64,000 bases of DNA from Actinomucor elegans (taxonomy: Eukaryota; Mucoromycota; Mucoromycetes; Mucorales; Mucoraceae). The notes beneath the pieces were generated by a model. The model was not told the DNA's origin, did not search any database, and worked only from the letters and a program-made list of their open reading frames with translations. How positions within the stretch are numbered: the first letter of the stretch is position 1; the number at the start of each line of letters is the position of its first letter. The position numbers and the translations under genes were made by a program. Where the stretch lies: assembly GCA_026027325.1 (NCBI GenBank), contig JAMSLZ010000008.1, forward strand, positions 1,550,001 through 1,614,000. The letters are read 5' to 3'. Of the stretch, positions 56,647-64,000 are shown one piece after another.

Positions 56647-57135
56647 TTATAGTTTTTGGAATATTAAATAGACTGCATGAACAATAGGGACATGGCCATG
56701 ATCGATTGTTTCTATATCAATGATCTCTTCCTCTTCTTGTTGAACTGATTCAGTTGGTTGAAAGTCTTTTCTATTTTTCGAATATCCCTCAGGCACCGTT
56801 ACTACCATTTCTTTTAATCTCAAAATATCACGTCCTAATTCCGCTTCTATATCCTCCAGAACTAGCATCGTCATAGGCCATAGCTTTCCTGTGGTAGGAT
56901 CTCGAATATCTTGTGTGCCAATAATGAGCATACCTTTACGAGCAAGCTTTAAGGCTGCTTCTGTAGCTAACCTTAGGAGCGCCTGTCTATAAACACTGAT
57001 GTTTTTGGGTAAAATACCCTCGATATGGCCCGTCACCATCAACGCCAGACCTGCTCCGGTATGTGGCGCCTTGTTCATCATTATATCATAGTGCACTACA
57101 TCATCGGATTCTTCACTCAATTCAGATATTAAGCC
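56647..57135 (-). other. C-terminal methyltransferase-like module of the large gene
   Basis: The last exon encodes 162 aa: 'HTGAGLALMVTGHIEGILP', 'YRQALLRLATEAALKLARK', 'GMLIIGTQDIRDPTTGKLW', 'PMTMLVLEDIEAEL', 'LRLKEMVVTVPEGYSKNR', 'VHAVYLIFQ'. The order (helix 'Y..L...A.EA..L', strand 'IGT.DIRD', 'P...L....', 'LKE.VV', final strand) parallels the second half of the preceding MTase domain ('YSKVVEESWRLLK', 'LGIGDNRE', 'IPVGFHLI', 'LEELV', 'FIATF'). It lacks motif I and a PPY motif, so it would be a dead half-domain, perhaps for dimerisation. This is inference from pattern similarity. Confidence 0.5.
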
Positions 57136-60100
57136 CTAATAGCATGATTGAGTATATGAGAACAGAAGGGTTTAAACATGGAGACATACCAATTTGAGTA
57201 AGGTCTGGTTGTTTTCCTCAATTCGTTTTAGTCTCTGCTGTTCATATTCCGATAGTAAATCTTGATCCTCAGGGCAGTCCACTGCTTGTTCTTGTTTCTC
57301 GCCTAAAATATAGTATATACTGGTTAATTTTTGAATAAAACACGTATAGATTATTTCATTTACCTGTGTTAAGGTTGACACTAGGTACCTGAATATCATC
57401 CAGTAAAGATGGAGGTTCTGATACTTGATCCTAGTTTTTTTTAAAAAAAAAGTTTATTTAAGACCACGAGTAACACTAGACAAATACTTGGGTGAGTTTA
57501 TGAATATGCTACTAACCTTGAATGTTAACTCAATATGTTCCCAGTTACAATCATCTTTGCCGAATCTCTCTACCATCCTAGATACACATAACTGACTTAA
57601 TTTGTATTTATGTGTTGGTTTAAATATCCACACTGTTCCCATCACTACACTCTTTCTCATAATAGCGGAATCGGGTATACCACGCGTTACACGCTTTACA
57701 GATATATTCTCAGCATCTAAAGTCAAATATATAAAGTTAGTTTATATCATCACTGACGAAATAGCCATAGTACTTACCATCTTCTTCATATTGTATAGGC
57801 ATCTTATCAATGTTTTCCTTCGGCAACTTTTTGAATGTTGCAATAAACTCGTGTGTAAATACCAAGAAATCAAACTGGACACATAGATATGTTCCAAGCC
57901 CAAAAGCGGAGCAGTATCGTTGTCTTTTATGACCTGTCAAATATGAATTCATTTTAGTACTATAGATTATAACCTAGAAAGATTTTACCAGCTCTTCTAA
58001 CTCAAACCCTTGATCAATATAAAGTCGAATCAGATGGAATCCAACTGGTATATAGAAGCAATGTTCTCTGTTGTCTCCGATACCCAATGTCAACCTTCTA
58101 CTCATCTTCAATAGTCTATAGGTTCATAAGTATATATTGATATCGATAGTAAAACTAATACAAACCTCCAACTTTCCTCAACTACCTTGGAGTACTCGAT
58201 TTTGAAGTCCTCAACGTTTGTGAATCTATTTTTACATTATTAATACGTCAAACCCTTTGAACAATCAGCATCTGAAACTGTACCGAGAGAGATCTCCTTC
58301 TAAATGAGTAGAGTAAGCTACGCAATCTTTGTACGGCGGATGTGACAAAACATGATGGTAGGACTCATCGTTAAATAGGGCTCCAGTCAAGTTACGTGAG
58401 TCTGCTTGTGCGATAATGGGACGATACTCTGCAGAGGTTAATCCTGGAGGCACCTCAAAACAACAATTGCGCTGCGACAGAGCTACAGCTGCCTAAAATA
58501 TGATATTAGTGATGTTAAACATTATAAATCAAAAGTATCATCACACTTACAGGGTTGATATCCACTCCACAGCATCTATGTTCATGAAAATGCCCCATGT
58601 TATTTGATATGTGACGATAGGTGGTTTATTCACTTACTTTCTTTGTAACAAAAAGCATTCAATAGCATCAGTGCCTATATTATATTGTGAATGAATGATG
58701 AAAAACGGTAGGATCAATACAGCTAGCTTTGTTATATACCTCTTCCTAAAAAGTTTGATAACACTCTTTCGTCTTTGCTTGTATGCTTCAAAATAGCTCT
58801 AGTAGCAAGATGAATTGATGAATCTGATAATAAAAAACAGGATTTAAATTATACCTTCGCACTGTTTGAGGTAGCCAGGTTCCTAAAGTATGACAACGTA
58901 TTAGGGTTTCTAAAATGTAAGACAAACAATGCAAGGTTTACCATGATAATCTGTCCCCGAATGCGTTGCCCAACGAGGTGCTCTTCCTGGTATATCGAAG
59001 TAAGTAGAATCAAATGTAAGCGAGAATAGCTGGTTAGGCTGCGGTTCATACGAAGCCAATCGAGATCCTGTAACAGCTTCACTGAATTTAATGGATGATA
59101 GTGCATCTCTTGTGAGGTAAGGCTTATGCGAATAGTCTTCAATTGAAGCAGCATACTCATGTTGACGCACTTGCACTCGAGGTTTTTGAAAACTATCGCC
59201 AACCAATTGCAATTGACCAGTTTCAGCAGACTTGCCATCATTATCAATAAGCAAAGCTAGTTCGAAACAAGGATTACACATGATCACTCCACCGTCATAT
59301 CCTTTTCGCCAACTACTGGCTTCGTATGTACCACAATAGCAACAAGACACAGGAATTGATCCGTCAGCCAGACGTCTACGTCGACGTGGAAACAGAGATT
59401 TCTTCTTTTTCTGAGAATCTATAATGTTCAAAAACCTTGTTAATATTGAGTTACTCATAAAGGTAAAATGGCTCTTACTGGCTGCTCTTATCTTTTCTTT
59501 CTCCCTAGCTGCTTCAGTGGCTTTTTGTGCTTCCATTTCCTTAATTATTGCAAACGCTACATTGAAAGACTTTTAGTAATATATAGAGATCAATTGCGTT
59601 GTGTATAAACAGGCTTACATGTCTCTTCGAACTGGTCTTCATTATGAGCATGATCAGCAGGAAATTTCTCATAGCACTATAGTGGAACATTAGTTGATTT
59701 ACTAGCTACTTGATAGCTGTCAAACTCTACCTCTGCGCACAAGTCAAAAGATGAGAAATAACTTGAGGCACAAGGGACACACGTAAACCAAGATTCATCG
59801 ACCAATTCTTTACTACATCCATCGCAACTGAACTTGTTGACGTATGTATCTATATCAATAATAACATAGAGTAAATGACTGTAATAAAGCTAACTCTAAA
59901 TCAAACCAATGCTTACCCTTCTTGTTATAATAAGCTTCATGAACACTACACCAAAATATAACACCACTTTTAAAGTAGCTAACGGGTTTCTGTGCGCATG
60001 GCAAATGGAAACTTTTGGAGCATTTTGATTCAAAGCATCCAATAGTAGCGCCTTTTTCTTTACATCCGTGGCACCGCTAAAAGAAAAGAGTCAACTCTCA

Positions 60101-63100
60101 AACTTGAATAAATCTGATTACAACTATCTGTATTACCATTCCTCTTCCACGCCTCAATGCTAAAGTAACATTATACCATTTTCCTTCGGGTGTGCAAAAG
60201 ACCTCGGGCGAGTATCTGGCGCAAGCATCATGAGCCCAGAACGATCTCTTTTTCTCTGTACCATTTTTGTTGAATGTAGCTATCACAAAGGGCCCAATGA
60301 ATGTACCAAGCTCTTCCGAGGTATCGTCATCGTCATTACAGAAAGCACACACTTTTCTACGTTTCCATCGTTTCAAGTATTTGTATCCTTGGTCTGTTTC
60401 TATAGGCACAGTTCCTGTGAACACTTTACTAGCATCAATCGCGCCGTTCTCCGTTTGAGGTTCTTCAACTGAAGGCTGAGAACTTTCTAACTGGGGCGTC
60501 TTATCTGATGTGTTCGTAACTTCAGTGACTGGTTGAGAATCTTGCTCTGTATTGAGTGTGCCATTCGTAGGTACATCTTCCAAGATATCTTCTTCCCACA
60601 CAGTAACCAGTTCACCTTTGATTGGTCTAGGTCCTATTTCAGAATCAATCACTGCCTGAATAGCAAAGCTAGATCGTGGATGTTCATGCCAGAATGGAAA
60701 GTTCTGATCGAAGCATCTAAAACATAAAGTCAATTAAAGCGCTCTCCAGAGCAAGAACATAAAAATAAACTATATACCTGAGGCAAAGCTCGAAACTAGT
60801 ATAATCTCTTCCAACTGACGGAGTCTCACAATAAGTACAGTAATATCTAAACTGTTTAATAACAACGCTGCATTGATTACAATGGACTTTCCAAACATCC
60901 GACTCGATATCAACTGCAAGTATATTAGATGTTAAATTCAAATCTTTTAAAAGCACGTTTTACTGGCTCATACCTTCTTCGTCGTTTTCATCATTCGTAT
61001 CTTTATGATGCTCTACTCCTTCACGATTTGAATCTTCCTCTGCAGTAGTGTCTTCTAAAGTGAGCCGCTTTCTAACGCGCTTGGGCACTTCTTGACGCAA
61101 CTCTAGCTCTGGATTCTCTAAAGGCTGCATGATAGGTTGTTCCAATTGCATTTGCTCATAGCGTTCGCGATAATTCGGTTCAATACATTCAACTTCATGA
61201 TCGTTTTCAATTGGTTGGAGCCGTCTACTTCCAAGGGTGATATACTCATCAAATGCATCAAGCCAACCGCAATAATGTACCTTGACTTTGTTCTTGTAAA
61301 TGCCGACCAACCTACCTTCATAAAGTTTTTTATCGAGATGAAGCACGGTTACATGCTGCATATAATCGTAACCATATACATTTGCTACAAACTTATAGTT
61401 TTCTAATGCCTTGGCTTGAGCTAAACGCAAGGAGATGATCTGATTATCATTAGAGTTTGAGGCTACATCAATTGGTGTTGACTGCGAGCAACAATTGTTC
61501 TCTTGGTGCGTGCTGCAGTTGTCTTCAGTCGAAGAATGGCGCTTTCTCTTGGTTGGAGCTGATGATTTGGGAACCTTTTGCTTCTTGCTATACTTCCTTG
61601 GTGTCTGAGTAGTCGTTTCCGGTACATACTCCTCATCTGGTTCAGATTCGTCTTCTTCAATATTGCTATCTCTTGAATTTGGCTTCTGACTTTGCTGTCT
61701 TCTCTTTTCCCGACGCTCCTTCTTTTGCGCTTCTTTGATAGCCTCTTCGTCCAAGTTAACAAGTAATCCCAATCGATGATAATCCTGAGGCAGGACTATT
61801 TGATGTTTTCGGTTTTTCTTTGCTTCTTCTGTTAACTCGGGATTGTTTTCTGCCATCAATAGCTCATTTCTCGCCGATTTAGATTGGCGTTTGTCCAAAC
61901 AGTTAGATTTCCCTGTCATATCATTTGACACTGACTCATGCACTACTGAATCATCGTCGACTTCATTTTCTCTGGCAATTCGTATTCTACGACTACCAAC
62001 CATGATCCATTCATCGTATTCATCGGTCCAGCCTTCATAATGCACTTTCACTTGACCTGGTCGCATAGCAACCAGTCTTCCTCGCTCCCAGAACTTGGCT
62101 TTACCTGATCGCGTATTCAGGACCTCAACTGCTTGATTATCAGTATAGCCATAAGGATTTGGTGTAAATCCATTCTTGTCTTTGAGCTGACGCATGGCTC
62201 TTCTGGTTGCAAATGCACCGGTAGTTAGATAAGCTTCATTAGTAGCAGTGTCTTCTGCGATGGTTTGTTTCTTTTCAGGCTCCATAGCGCCGATATTACT
62301 CGCTGGTCTCAAACCAATACCTTCATCAAGTTCTGCTTCAGTGCCACTTGCTTCAATAGGACGTTTGATAGTTTCCATAATCGCAGTCGCAGCCTTTTTA
62401 GCCTTTCCTTGATTCTTTTTTTTGGTCAAAGCTTTAGTTTTATCAATTGCCTTGATTATTTTGCCCTTTTTGGCTGAAGAGCCATTGGTCTTATCTTGGT
62501 AATTTGAATTTGATTCAGGTTTAGCCATCTCTACGGCAGCCGTTTTGCCCTTGCTGGCTTTTAAAGAAATAGACGGAACTTCTTGTAGATCAAGATTGAC
62601 CTTGGTATCAAATAGTACGGCTTCTTCTTCTTCCTCAGTCATTACCCTCAAGCGACGACTACCTACGGGCAACCATTCTGAAATATGAAGATCAGGGTAC
62701 CAAACTCTAACTTGCTCTTGATGCATTTCTCGAAGATAGCCAACACACTCTTCTTTGACCTTTCGCCCATCTTTTCTCTTGGAATGAAAGGTTATAGCAA
62801 CAGCACGATTGCGTCTATATCCAAATAAATTCGGTTTAAATCCATATTCATCTACTAACTCGCGTGCCATTCTACGTGTCATAAAAACTTCGTTATTATT
62901 GAATATTTGAGTGGGATCTTTGTCCAAAGCATGACTAATATAATCATCGCTTAGCTTTTTGTGAGAGCCAGGGACAGGCTTCGTTTGGGTAAATCCAGTA
63001 GCTGTTGATGCATCATTCTCTGGACTATCTATTAAATATAATAAATTAAACCCTTTGTCTATTTCAATAATGATCAAGACTATGGTTGACCTTTACCTTG

Positions 63101-64000
63101 AACTTTTGCATCATCTTTATTGGTGATTGCTTCATCTGAGGCCTCTTGCTTATTAATTTTGGTGATTTGCTCTTCATCCTCTTTGGAAAGAACGCGTAGA
63201 CGTCTGCTTTCCATAATGATCCACTCTTGGTCATCCCAATCATCGTACTGCACCATGACTTTACCGCTTCTCATCATCTCTAGCGTTCCACGATACCAGC
63301 GACCATTGATGTTTAAAACCTCTACGCGTTGGTGGCGAACAAACCCATGGGGGTTAGGATAAAACCCAAACTCTGGATCTGCCAAGGTCTTTGCAGTCTT
63401 ACGAGTCATAAAAGCACCAGTTGTAATATGGTCTTCTGGCTTGTCTTTAATGGATAAAGCTTTGATGGTGCTTTCAGCATTATTGACAATGGTTTTAGTT
63501 TTGATTTTTTGAGATTGACGTGATTTGGTGGGAGGAATAGATAGACCGATATTTCGTGGTTTCTTTGCCACAATAGCGCTTCGCTTTGCGGTCGTAGATG
63601 TATTGGCCTTTGATTGCTTGCTTGGATTTGCTGGACTCTTATTACAGATTAAGTTCTCAGACACTTTTATTTTCTTTTTGATAGAAGTCGAAGCAGGCTC
63701 GGTGCATTCTGGAGAATGACCTTTATCAAGGGCCTGAGCTTTTGTCGAGAAGCCTTCGAGGATACGCTTCCATTCAATCTGACAGTCTGAGCATACAGCG
63801 ATAGTTTGTAACGGGTCTCGATCTACAGTGCCGATGTAACTGTTTTCAATACATTGCTTACAATCAGTATATGTTGGGTGATTATCTTCGGTTTTTAATG
63901 ACTTGTCTAAAGGATTGGGTTCAATCATGCCAAGTTCAATCCAAGGGCCCAAGACATCATCATCAGATTGCAATGAATCAATAGATTCGGTGTCATCGTT
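56647..64000 (-). CDS. Giant chromatin-reader / DNA methyltransferase fusion protein (5' end outside the window)
   Basis: Twenty-one exons in the window: 63097->64000, 60974-63028, 60778-60913, 60137-60716, 59917-60076, 59731-59849, 59619-59676, 59479-59556, 58942-59418, 58855-58882, 58740-58798, 58638-58674, 58551-58575, 58284-58492, 58166-58225, 57989-58115, 57778-57933, 57517-57716, 57364-57430, 57190-57302 and 56647-57135 (about 2045 residues). Order of domains: a GATA-like C2C2 finger (CKQC-x19-CSDC); four Tudor/MBT-like repeats; a ZZ-like finger ('HCNQC..YYCTYC..LCLRCF..HEH'); an extended PHD ('CAFCND', 'FWAHDACARYSPEV', 'RCHGCKEKGATIGCF', 'FHLPCA'); a second ZZ-like finger ('CDGC..FTCVPC..DLCAECY..HAH'); a GATA finger ('SSWRKGYDGGVIMCNPC'); a DNA methyltransferase; and a C-terminal methyltransferase-like module. 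Phases agree at every junction except 57989/57933, where one base is missing. The single-gene model is inferred from uninterrupted phase and domain completion; no stop or promoter-like gap separates readers from enzyme. Confidence 0.82.
57778..59070 (-). other. DNA amino-methyltransferase domain of the large gene
   Basis: Across eight to nine exons the spliced protein reads as a complete bacterial-type MTase. Block order: 'FSLTFDSTYFDIPGRAPRW' lead-in; 'SGTDYHGTWLPQTVRRAIL'; SAM motif I 'VLSNFLGRGTDAIECFLL'; 'CCGVDINPAAVALSQRN' (acidic SAM residue); 'QADSRNL'; the catalytic tetrad position 'LSHPPYKDCVAYS', then 'EGDLSRF'; 'YSKVVEESWRLLK'; 'LGIGDNREHCFYIPVGF'; 'QRYCSAFG' and 'FLVFTHEFIATFKK'. 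Motif I lies before the PPY motif with no target-recognition insert between them. The family transfers methyl to exocyclic amino groups (N6-adenine or N4-cytosine). HPPY replaces the usual (D/N/S)PP(Y/W). Confidence 0.85.
61190..63415 (-). repeat. Four Tudor/MBT-like repeats inside the large gene
   Basis: The repeats lie at about 63160-63415, 62640-62890, 61970-62225 and 61190-61420. Each begins with a 'T-R-R/K' helix and 'G-F-x-P-N-x-x-G-Y/F' (the fourth reads 'FVANVYGYDY'). Then comes a barrel 'V-x-V-L-...-W/Y-E-R-G-x-L' and a closing 'V-K-V-H-Y-x-G-W-x-D-E-x-D-E-W-I-x-x-G-S-R-R-L-R'. The aromatic W/Y and acidic residues in the closing strand are cage-type positions used by Tudor/MBT folds to bind methyl-lysine. 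Repeat 2 lacks the GW and is shorter there. The linkers are basic and Lys-rich. Confidence 0.75.

What the first reader, a model, noticed from the sequence alone, without database searches (positions are those of the whole stretch)
56647..64000. Chromatin-reader array fused to a bacterial-type DNA methyltransferase in a fungus
Seen: one minus-strand gene whose exons join in phase and encode GATA-like finger, four Tudor/MBT-like repeats, ZZ-like finger, extended PHD, second ZZ-like finger, GATA finger, then a complete amino-DNA-methyltransferase domain (motif I 'NFLGRGTDAIEC', catalytic 'SHPPY', 'THEF' ending). Known: early-diverging fungi carry abundant N6-methyladenine and use MT-A70-type (MTA1) enzymes; bdelloid rotifers have a horizontally acquired N4-cytosine MTase fused to a chromodomain. 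Inference: this is an independent reader-writer fusion in which an MTase captured from bacteria is guided to chromatin by methyl-lysine and DNA-binding modules. I know of no described system with this domain order.
Basis: partly seen in the sequence, partly recalled or inferred. Interest (0 to 1): 0.95.

Follow-up and report, generated by a model that had tools for sequence, protein, structure and literature searches.

The report
Chromatin-reading bacterial-type DNA methyltransferase in fungi
Early-branching fungi carry a giant protein that joins histone-reading modules to an enzyme of the kind bacteria use to methylate DNA, a deeply conserved and apparently unstudied candidate writer of chemical marks on fungal DNA.

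Summary
The gene is real. On the minus strand it runs from its stop at 56647 past the window end to an ATG 838 bases beyond (23 exons in my model, 2,284 residues). Two searches found 150 and 141 full-length relatives; every named row listed (120 shown of each) is an early-diverging fungus, chytrids to Mucorales. HPPY is kept in 132 of 134 retrieved proteins. The active/degenerate tandem is also that of a prokaryotic family scored as Type II modification enzymes, with a restriction-enzyme match in 9 of 36 downstream neighbours. So the enzyme was most likely acquired once from prokaryotes, early in fungal evolution. The product is unknown: motif IV is HPPY, neither SPPY nor DPPY. The Mucor adenine-methylation study deleted other enzymes. 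This copy has one frame break, at 57933, so its intactness is unsettled. Function is inferred, not shown.

The parts
56647..64000 (-). Window part of the gene (21 of the 23 exons of my model, the first of them cut by the window end; the gene starts at an ATG 838 bases beyond, C26:1614838)
63191..63364 (-). MBT/Tudor-like repeat 1 (residues 452-509)
   Evidence: (Agenet above cut-off)
62643..62840 (-). MBT/Tudor-like repeat 2 (604-669)
61977..62168 (-). MBT/Tudor-like repeat 3 (828-891)
   Evidence: (MBT above cut-off)
61212..61391 (-). MBT/Tudor-like repeat 4 (1087-1146)
60680..60881 (-). ZZ finger 1 (1237-1283, one intron inside)
   Evidence: 8 ligands each kept in 90-96% of 118 orthologs; the ZZ match is to ZZ2, not here
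59939..60349 (-). Extended PHD finger (1394-1510, one intron inside)
   Evidence: Pfam zf-HC5HC2H above cut-off; ligands; nearest solved: KMT2D, PHF7, PHF6
59644..59826 (-). ZZ finger 2 (1526-1568, one intron inside)
   Evidence: Pfam ZZ below cut-off; 8 ligands each kept in 91-96% of 118
59267..59344 (-). GATA-type finger (1628-1653)
   Evidence: Pfam GATA E 0.002, below cut-off; four Cys in 98% of 118
57827..59008 (-). Catalytic methyltransferase domain (1740-1979): SAM motif NFLGRGTD 58755-58667 (split by an intron), SHPPY 58345-58331, THEF within 57859-57845
   Evidence: model
57934..57988 (-). Intron after which the reading frame is shifted by one position (frame break at the first codons of the exon starting at 57933)
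   Evidence: orthologs P0001, P0065, P0073 read through
56650..57657 (-). C-terminal degenerate methyltransferase domain (2016-2284), without SAM motif or PPY
   Evidence: hhalign; weak structural support
63782..63862 (-). Weak N-terminal CxxC...CxxC knuckle, lineage-restricted
   Evidence: 12 of 134 proteins

Best explanation
This is a nuclear DNA amino-methyltransferase of early-diverging fungi. Its catalytic half, a tandem of one active and one degenerate methyltransferase domain, descends from a prokaryotic modification enzyme acquired once near the base of the fungi. There it was joined to a chromatin-reading front half (MBT/Tudor repeats, ZZ, extended PHD, ZZ, GATA-type finger). Proposed mechanism: the readers bind nucleosomes with particular histone marks; the first methyltransferase domain takes SAM through its FLGRGTD and DIN motifs and methylates an exocyclic amino group, N4 of cytosine or N6 of adenine, in nearby DNA; the degenerate second domain acts as an intramolecular scaffold or DNA-holding partner, as METTL14 does for METTL3 (recalled). 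Shown: domains, conservation, kinship with prokaryotic modification enzymes, origin of the second domain (gene structure as a model without transcripts). Inferred: catalysis, product base, histone marks read, nuclear location, role of the second domain, direction of transfer.
For: One gene with readers and enzyme together. HPPY in 132 of 134 proteins; among 118 chosen for SHPPYK, GDNR in all and the DIN aspartate in 99%. Kin: PADLOC Type II methyltransferase PDLC03376, E 2.9e-30 for the window piece; HPPY invariant in 17 of 17 prokaryotic relatives aligned. Neighbours: of 36 same-strand downstream genes of the prokaryotic two-domain form, 9 match Type II restriction-enzyme models, 6 of them DpnII-type. 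Tandem: prokaryotic active against prokaryotic C-terminal domain 99.1% probability, E 2e-18, five column-shuffled controls at most 4.3%; prokaryotic against fungal C-terminal domain 99.2%, E 6e-20, no shuffled control. Tree: 23 fungal and 7 metagenomic eukaryote-like rows on one side of a branch, SH-aLRT 100. Readers: solved kin L3MBTL3 and PHF20L1, KMT2D, Peregrin (BRPF1) and Jade-1.
Against: No activity, localisation or binding data. HPPY is not given as a DNA N4 or N6 motif in the passages I saw. Nearest solved folds of the catalytic domain are tRNA N2-guanine enzymes (Trm11, TrmN, Trm14); circularly permuted DNA enzymes may be penalised by sequential alignment (inference). In some orthologs Pfam names on the Tudor repeats carry an RNA link: PUA_4 and Tudor-knot above cut-off in P0122, Tudor-knot in P0149. 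The Asp invariant in the prokaryotic SAM motif is Ser in the window. Deletions of metB and mta1 in Mucor remove asymmetric and symmetric 6mA respectively, leaving little for this enzyme if it makes 6mA. This copy has a frame break. The fungal active and fungal C-terminal domains do not match each other (0.3%). In the neighbour control (36 genes four positions away) seven restriction-enzyme models matched one gene each, so 1 to 7 genes: the contrast with 9 of 36 is not strong.
Confidence: 0.66

Rival explanations
1. The methyltransferase acts on RNA (or another nuclear substrate) rather than DNA: the readers place it on transcribed chromatin and it modifies nascent RNA.
For: Nearest solved folds are tRNA m2G enzymes, which also appear in the sequence search of the prokaryotic profile; several prokaryotic relatives are precomputed with PF01170/UPF0020; PUA_4 and Tudor-knot, names with an RNA link, score above cut-off on the Tudor repeats of P0122, and Tudor-knot on P0149.
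Against: No THUMP match. The best PADLOC model is a Type II DNA modification enzyme, the top solved relatives by sequence are a putative modification methylase and DpnA, a DNA methyltransferase, and 9 of 36 downstream neighbours of the prokaryotic two-domain genes match restriction-enzyme models.
Confidence: 0.17
2. The protein is a chromatin scaffold whose methyltransferase no longer catalyses; both halves now serve as binding modules.
For: The second domain lacks the SAM and PPY motifs; motif IV is an unusual HPPY; the Asp invariant in the prokaryotic SAM motif is Ser in the window protein.
Against: HPPY is invariant in the 17 prokaryotic relatives aligned, so it is not fungal decay; FLGRGTD is kept in 96-97% and GDNR in all of 118 fungal orthologs, and HPPY in 132 of 134.
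Confidence: 0.12
3. In this genome the gene is a recent pseudogene: the frame break at 57933 truncates the protein inside the catalytic domain.
For: The frame shifts by one position after the intron 57988-57934, and I found by hand no alternative canonical splice that keeps the frame and the conserved residues (sequence; inference).
Against: 340 codons downstream remain open with splice sites intact and resemble orthologs; one-base errors are common in long-read assemblies (recalled). Only this locus matched in the genome.
Confidence: 0.2
4. The gene passed vertically from an ancient eukaryote rather than by horizontal transfer, and was lost elsewhere.
For: The tree is unrooted and the fungal branch is long, so direction is not shown.
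Against: Every named eukaryote listed is an early-diverging fungus (capped lists), while prokaryotic members span many phyla.
Confidence: 0.08

Closest known systems
Bdelloid rotifer N4CMT (PMC8885841; passages seen)
   Same: Horizontally acquired PF01555 amino-methyltransferase fused to a methyl-lysine reader
   Different: N4CMT is a permuted beta-type enzyme with SPPY and one C-terminal chromodomain; this has HPPY, the SAM motif before motif IV, a second degenerate domain and a large N-terminal reader array, and is spread through early-diverging fungi
MetB of Mucor and other early-diverging fungi (PMC11258239; passages seen; section 12)
   Same: Prokaryote-derived amino-methyltransferase in the same fungi
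   Different: MetB is PF02384, grouped there with Type I and IC restriction methylases; a PF02384 locus lies elsewhere in this genome. No reader fusion is described in the passages seen
MTA1/MTA9 and METTL3/METTL14 (MT-A70, PF05063)
   Same: Active subunit paired with a degenerate one
   Different: Separate proteins of another family; three MT-A70 stretches lie elsewhere in this genome. METTL3/14 recalled
Prokaryotic two-domain HPPY modification enzymes (PADLOC PDLC03376 kin)
   Same: Same active plus degenerate tandem and shared HPPY, GDLS, GD and HE motifs
   Different: No reader array: the whole proteins are 436-574 residues; 9 of 36 downstream neighbours match restriction-enzyme models
UHRF1/DNMT1, DNMT3A and plant CMT reader-writer systems (recalled)
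   Same: Histone reading coupled to DNA methylation
   Different: 5mC systems, unrelated catalytic family

Membership tests
N6_N4_Mtase (PF01555) DNA methyltransferases | Pfam score above the curated cut-off | tested here: met
   29.1 bits against 26.7; orthologs P0188 34.2, P0101 38.2
N6_N4_Mtase (PF01555) DNA methyltransferases | Motif IV of the form (D/N/S)PP(Y/F/W) | tested here: not met
   HPPY in 132 of 134 fungal proteins and 17 of 17 prokaryotic relatives; the motif rule is from PMC8885841 (passages) and recall
Prokaryotic two-domain Type II modification enzymes (PDLC03376 kin) | Active domain matches the model | tested here: met
   E 2.9e-30 window piece, 3.2e-39 P0001
Prokaryotic two-domain Type II modification enzymes (PDLC03376 kin) | Homologous degenerate C-terminal domain | tested here: met
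   hhalign 99.2%, E 6e-20
Prokaryotic two-domain Type II modification enzymes (PDLC03376 kin) | Modifies DNA in vitro or in vivo | not testable with these tools
   no characterised member turned up in my searches
MT-A70 (MTA1/METTL) enzymes | PF05063 domain with DPPW | tested here: not met
   no PF05063 among the matches up to E 1; motif is HPPY
MetB (PF02384) family | N6_Mtase PF02384 domain | tested here: not met
   no PF02384 match; a separate PF02384 locus exists at C24
Histone-reader proteins (MBT/Tudor, ePHD) | Domain match and zinc ligands | tested here: met
Histone-reader proteins (MBT/Tudor, ePHD) | Binds modified histones | not testable with these tools
   needs binding assays
THUMP-type tRNA N2-guanine methyltransferases (Trm11/Trm14) | THUMP domain and (D/N)PPY (recalled) | tested here: not met
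   no THUMP match; HPPY

The most novel reading that the evidence does not exclude
An undescribed DNA-marking system about as old as the fungal radiation: a histone-guided writer, with an active and an inactive methyltransferase in one chain, that deposits 4-methylcytosine or a third, separate class of 6-methyladenine across the early-diverging fungi and is missing from Dikarya.
Probability: 0.4. Interest if true: 0.93.

Novelty: new variant of a known kind. Interest (0 to 1): 0.82.

Why it matters
Early-diverging fungi are a stronghold of non-5mC DNA methylation in eukaryotes, and two adenine writers have been worked out in Mucor (PMC11258239, passages). A further candidate, found in chytrids and Kickxellomycota as well as Mucoromycota and physically wired to histone-reader domains, is open to a simple test in a tractable fungus. 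It would show how a restriction-modification enzyme was turned into a chromatin regulator early in fungal history, and whether 4mC exists as a fungal mark. It also brings to notice a prokaryotic HPPY enzyme family with an active/degenerate tandem for which I found no characterised member.

Tried and rejected
Two separate genes with a promoter near 59 kb: rejected, because ePHD, ZZ and GATA-type ligands and the methyltransferase lie in one protein in 118 aligned orthologs, and a metagenomic protein, P0021, carries ePHD and methyltransferase (above cut-off) with a ZZ (below cut-off) in 456 residues.

Ordinary eukaryotic RNA methyltransferase: rejected as family placement, kept as a rival for substrate because the nearest solved folds are Trm11/TrmN/Trm14. 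In the sequence search with the prokaryotic profile both kinds appear: 2zie (putative modification methylase), DpnA, N4 methyltransferase 8s9n, MboIIA, CcrM and PvuII, and also tRNA enzymes such as 5e71 and 6zxw.

PF01555 over the whole genome gave nothing at E 0.1: I take this as a miss of the method, since the domain is split over short exons. NCBIfam gave no match for the two fungal proteins scanned. The viral structure library and the phage, plasmid and E. coli collections were not searched. The species of the window was not settled; the closest named proteins are Mucorales at 74-76%.

Absence from Dikarya rests on the 120 listed rows of each of two searches (150 and 141 hits; 30 and 21 rows not shown), not on a targeted search. 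Literature: ten searches of an open-access library showed no description of this family in their listings or in the passages I opened; the 2016 survey of eukaryotic adenine methyltransferases by Iyer and co-workers (recalled) is not held and Mondo 2017 was not read, so prior notice in print is possible. Seen as passages only: PMC12695648, PMC13297926, PMC8885841, PMC12344493, PMC7862722; passages plus one section: PMC11258239 (section 12), PMC8298701 (section 11).

Rows dropped: the tree used 108 rows, leaving out 5 of 80 loci without a whole target ORF (L029, L037, L057, L058, L060) and the odd-numbered single-domain loci. Two of 120 proteins without SHPPYK were left out of the conservation table, so its 100% for that motif is by selection; 132 of 134 is the fair count. 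36 of 41 downstream neighbours were scanned, five on the opposite strand left out. The control used 36 of 58 genes.

Full report
What is there. The window is C26:1550001-1614000 of a 36.5 Mb, 27-contig genome. Read on the minus strand, 20 canonical introns of 50-86 bases can be placed inside the window between 64000 and the TAA at 56647. Upstream of the window two more introns lead to an ATG at C26:1614838, 838 bases past the window end. The model has 23 exons and 2,284 residues, counting one X at the frame break. The splice model is mine, by hand, and rests on reading frame, splice sites and orthologs, not on transcripts.

Domains. Pfam gives N6_N4_Mtase, zf-HC5HC2H, Agenet and MBT above the curated cut-offs, and GATA, ZZ and Tudor_4 below. 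Four repeats of about 60 residues match a family profile, which the window's repeats helped to build; of 127 proteins of 1,280-3,100 residues, the window's included, 126 have at least one repeat and 60 have four. Their solved kin are L3MBTL3 and PHF20L1; those of the extended PHD include KMT2D, PHF7, PHF6, NTO1, Peregrin (BRPF1) and Jade-1. All 32 Cys/His ligands of ZZ1, ePHD, ZZ2 and the GATA-type finger are each kept in at least 90% of 118 orthologs.

Spread. Searching with the window's own catalytic and C-terminal region against 5.8 billion proteins gave 150 relatives of comparable length, 120 listed; searching with the chytrid Spizellomyces protein gave 141, 120 listed. Every named row in both lists is an early-diverging fungus: Mucorales, Umbelopsis, Mortierella kin, Glomeromycota, Jimgerdemannia, Kickxellomycota, Entomophthorales, Basidiobolus, Piptocephalis, Syncephalis and chytrids. 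Taxonomy was looked up for four species; the rest is recalled. No Dikarya is listed; 30 and 21 hits were not shown. Most names are 'hypothetical' or 'uncharacterized protein'; one, of Mucor ambiguus, is 'DNA methylase N-4'.

Catalytic half. The SAM motif FLGRGTD, the DIN acid, SHPPY, GDLS, GDNR and the HE of THEF are conserved. HPPY is in 132 of 134 proteins. It is equally invariant in 17 of 17 prokaryotic relatives aligned, so it is a family trait and not fungal decay. It is neither the SPPY of N4-cytosine nor the DPPY of N6-adenine enzymes as put in PMC8885841 (passages). One departure: the Asp that is invariant in the prokaryotic SAM motif is Ser in the window protein.

Genome context of the prokaryotic form. 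Of 36 same-strand downstream neighbours, 6 carry a DpnII endonuclease domain and 3 the DUF6996/6997 pair; nine distinct genes match Type II restriction-enzyme models. One neighbour carries a PDDEXK nuclease domain and one is another methyltransferase. 33 of the 36 fall into five recurring families, the largest (15) without a Pfam match in the three members scanned singly, and 16 of 36 overlap the methyltransferase gene. In 36 control genes four positions away, seven restriction-enzyme models matched one gene each, so between 1 and 7 genes. These are defence-rich neighbourhoods, and the case rests on adjacency and recurrence more than on the count. Together with the PADLOC match (E 2.9e-30 for the window's piece) this makes DNA the likelier ancestral substrate.

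Origin. In a tree of 108 rows the 23 fungal and 7 eukaryote-like metagenomic sequences stand on one side of a branch with SH-aLRT 100, the 78 prokaryotic ones on the other. The tree is unrooted, the method was the quick one, and long branches were flagged. That only fungi are found among the named eukaryotes listed, that prokaryotic carriers are scattered over phyla, and that the odd tandem architecture is shared all point to one transfer from prokaryotes before chytrids and the terrestrial fungi parted. This is inference; the donor is not identified.

What it probably does. The anatomy is that of a reader-writer: modules of histone-binding and DNA-binding families tethered to an amino-methyltransferase. 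The fungus that carries the window also has three MT-A70 stretches, a PF02384 (MetB-like) locus and two cytosine-5 methyltransferase stretches, so this would be one more writer. In Mucor lusitanicus deletion of metB removed the asymmetric 6mA motif and 70-75% of 6mA, and deletion of mta1 or p1 removed all symmetric sites; metA and metC deletions gave no significant reduction. The genes deleted there are metA (PF05175), metB (PF02384), metC (PF05063), mta1, p1 and dmt1; the PF01555 fusion is not among them in the passages I read. If the assignment of 6mA is nearly complete, 4mC is the product to look for first. This is a deduction, not a result.

Caveat of this copy. The exon beginning at 57933 is out of phase by one position with the exon before it, in the middle of the catalytic domain, whereas orthologs read straight through. 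Everything downstream is open. I cannot tell a base-calling error from a young pseudogene; it does not affect the family.

Verdict. What the tools add is that it is an old family of early-diverging fungi, that its enzyme half is an active/degenerate tandem of prokaryotic kinship with an HPPY motif, and that I found no published work on it in the library held. The principle (a captured amino-methyltransferase fused to a chromatin reader) is known from rotifers, so I rate it a new variant of a known kind, with high interest because it is testable now.

Noticed in passing
L005:3627-5836 (C26, + strand, beyond the window end): A divergently oriented set of open frames whose translations resemble a family X DNA polymerase (recalled resemblance, not searched).
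   Followed up: no
G000 C24:487289-487972: PF02384 (MetB-like) locus of the same genome, E 5e-15.
   Followed up: no
G000 C25:1708794, C5:516334, C21:3124861: Three MT-A70 (PF05063) stretches of the same genome.
   Followed up: no
L023, L026, L031, L032, L033, L035, L039, L041, L043, L045, L047, L048, L052, L056, L061: gene downstream of the prokaryotic two-domain gene: A recurring partner family of 125-196 residues, often overlapping the methyltransferase gene by a few bases; the three members scanned singly have no Pfam match; candidate unrecognised restriction or partner protein.
   Followed up: partly
L015, L024, L034, L038, L040, L053: downstream gene: A second recurring partner family of 402-459 residues; the two members scanned singly have no Pfam match.
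   Followed up: partly
P0003, P0010, P0018, P0021, P0022, P0023, P0024: Eukaryote-like metagenomic proteins on the fungal side of the tree; six of the seven fall outside the named fungi, P0018 near Spizellomyces. P0021 and P0023 carry ePHD plus methyltransferase.
   Followed up: partly
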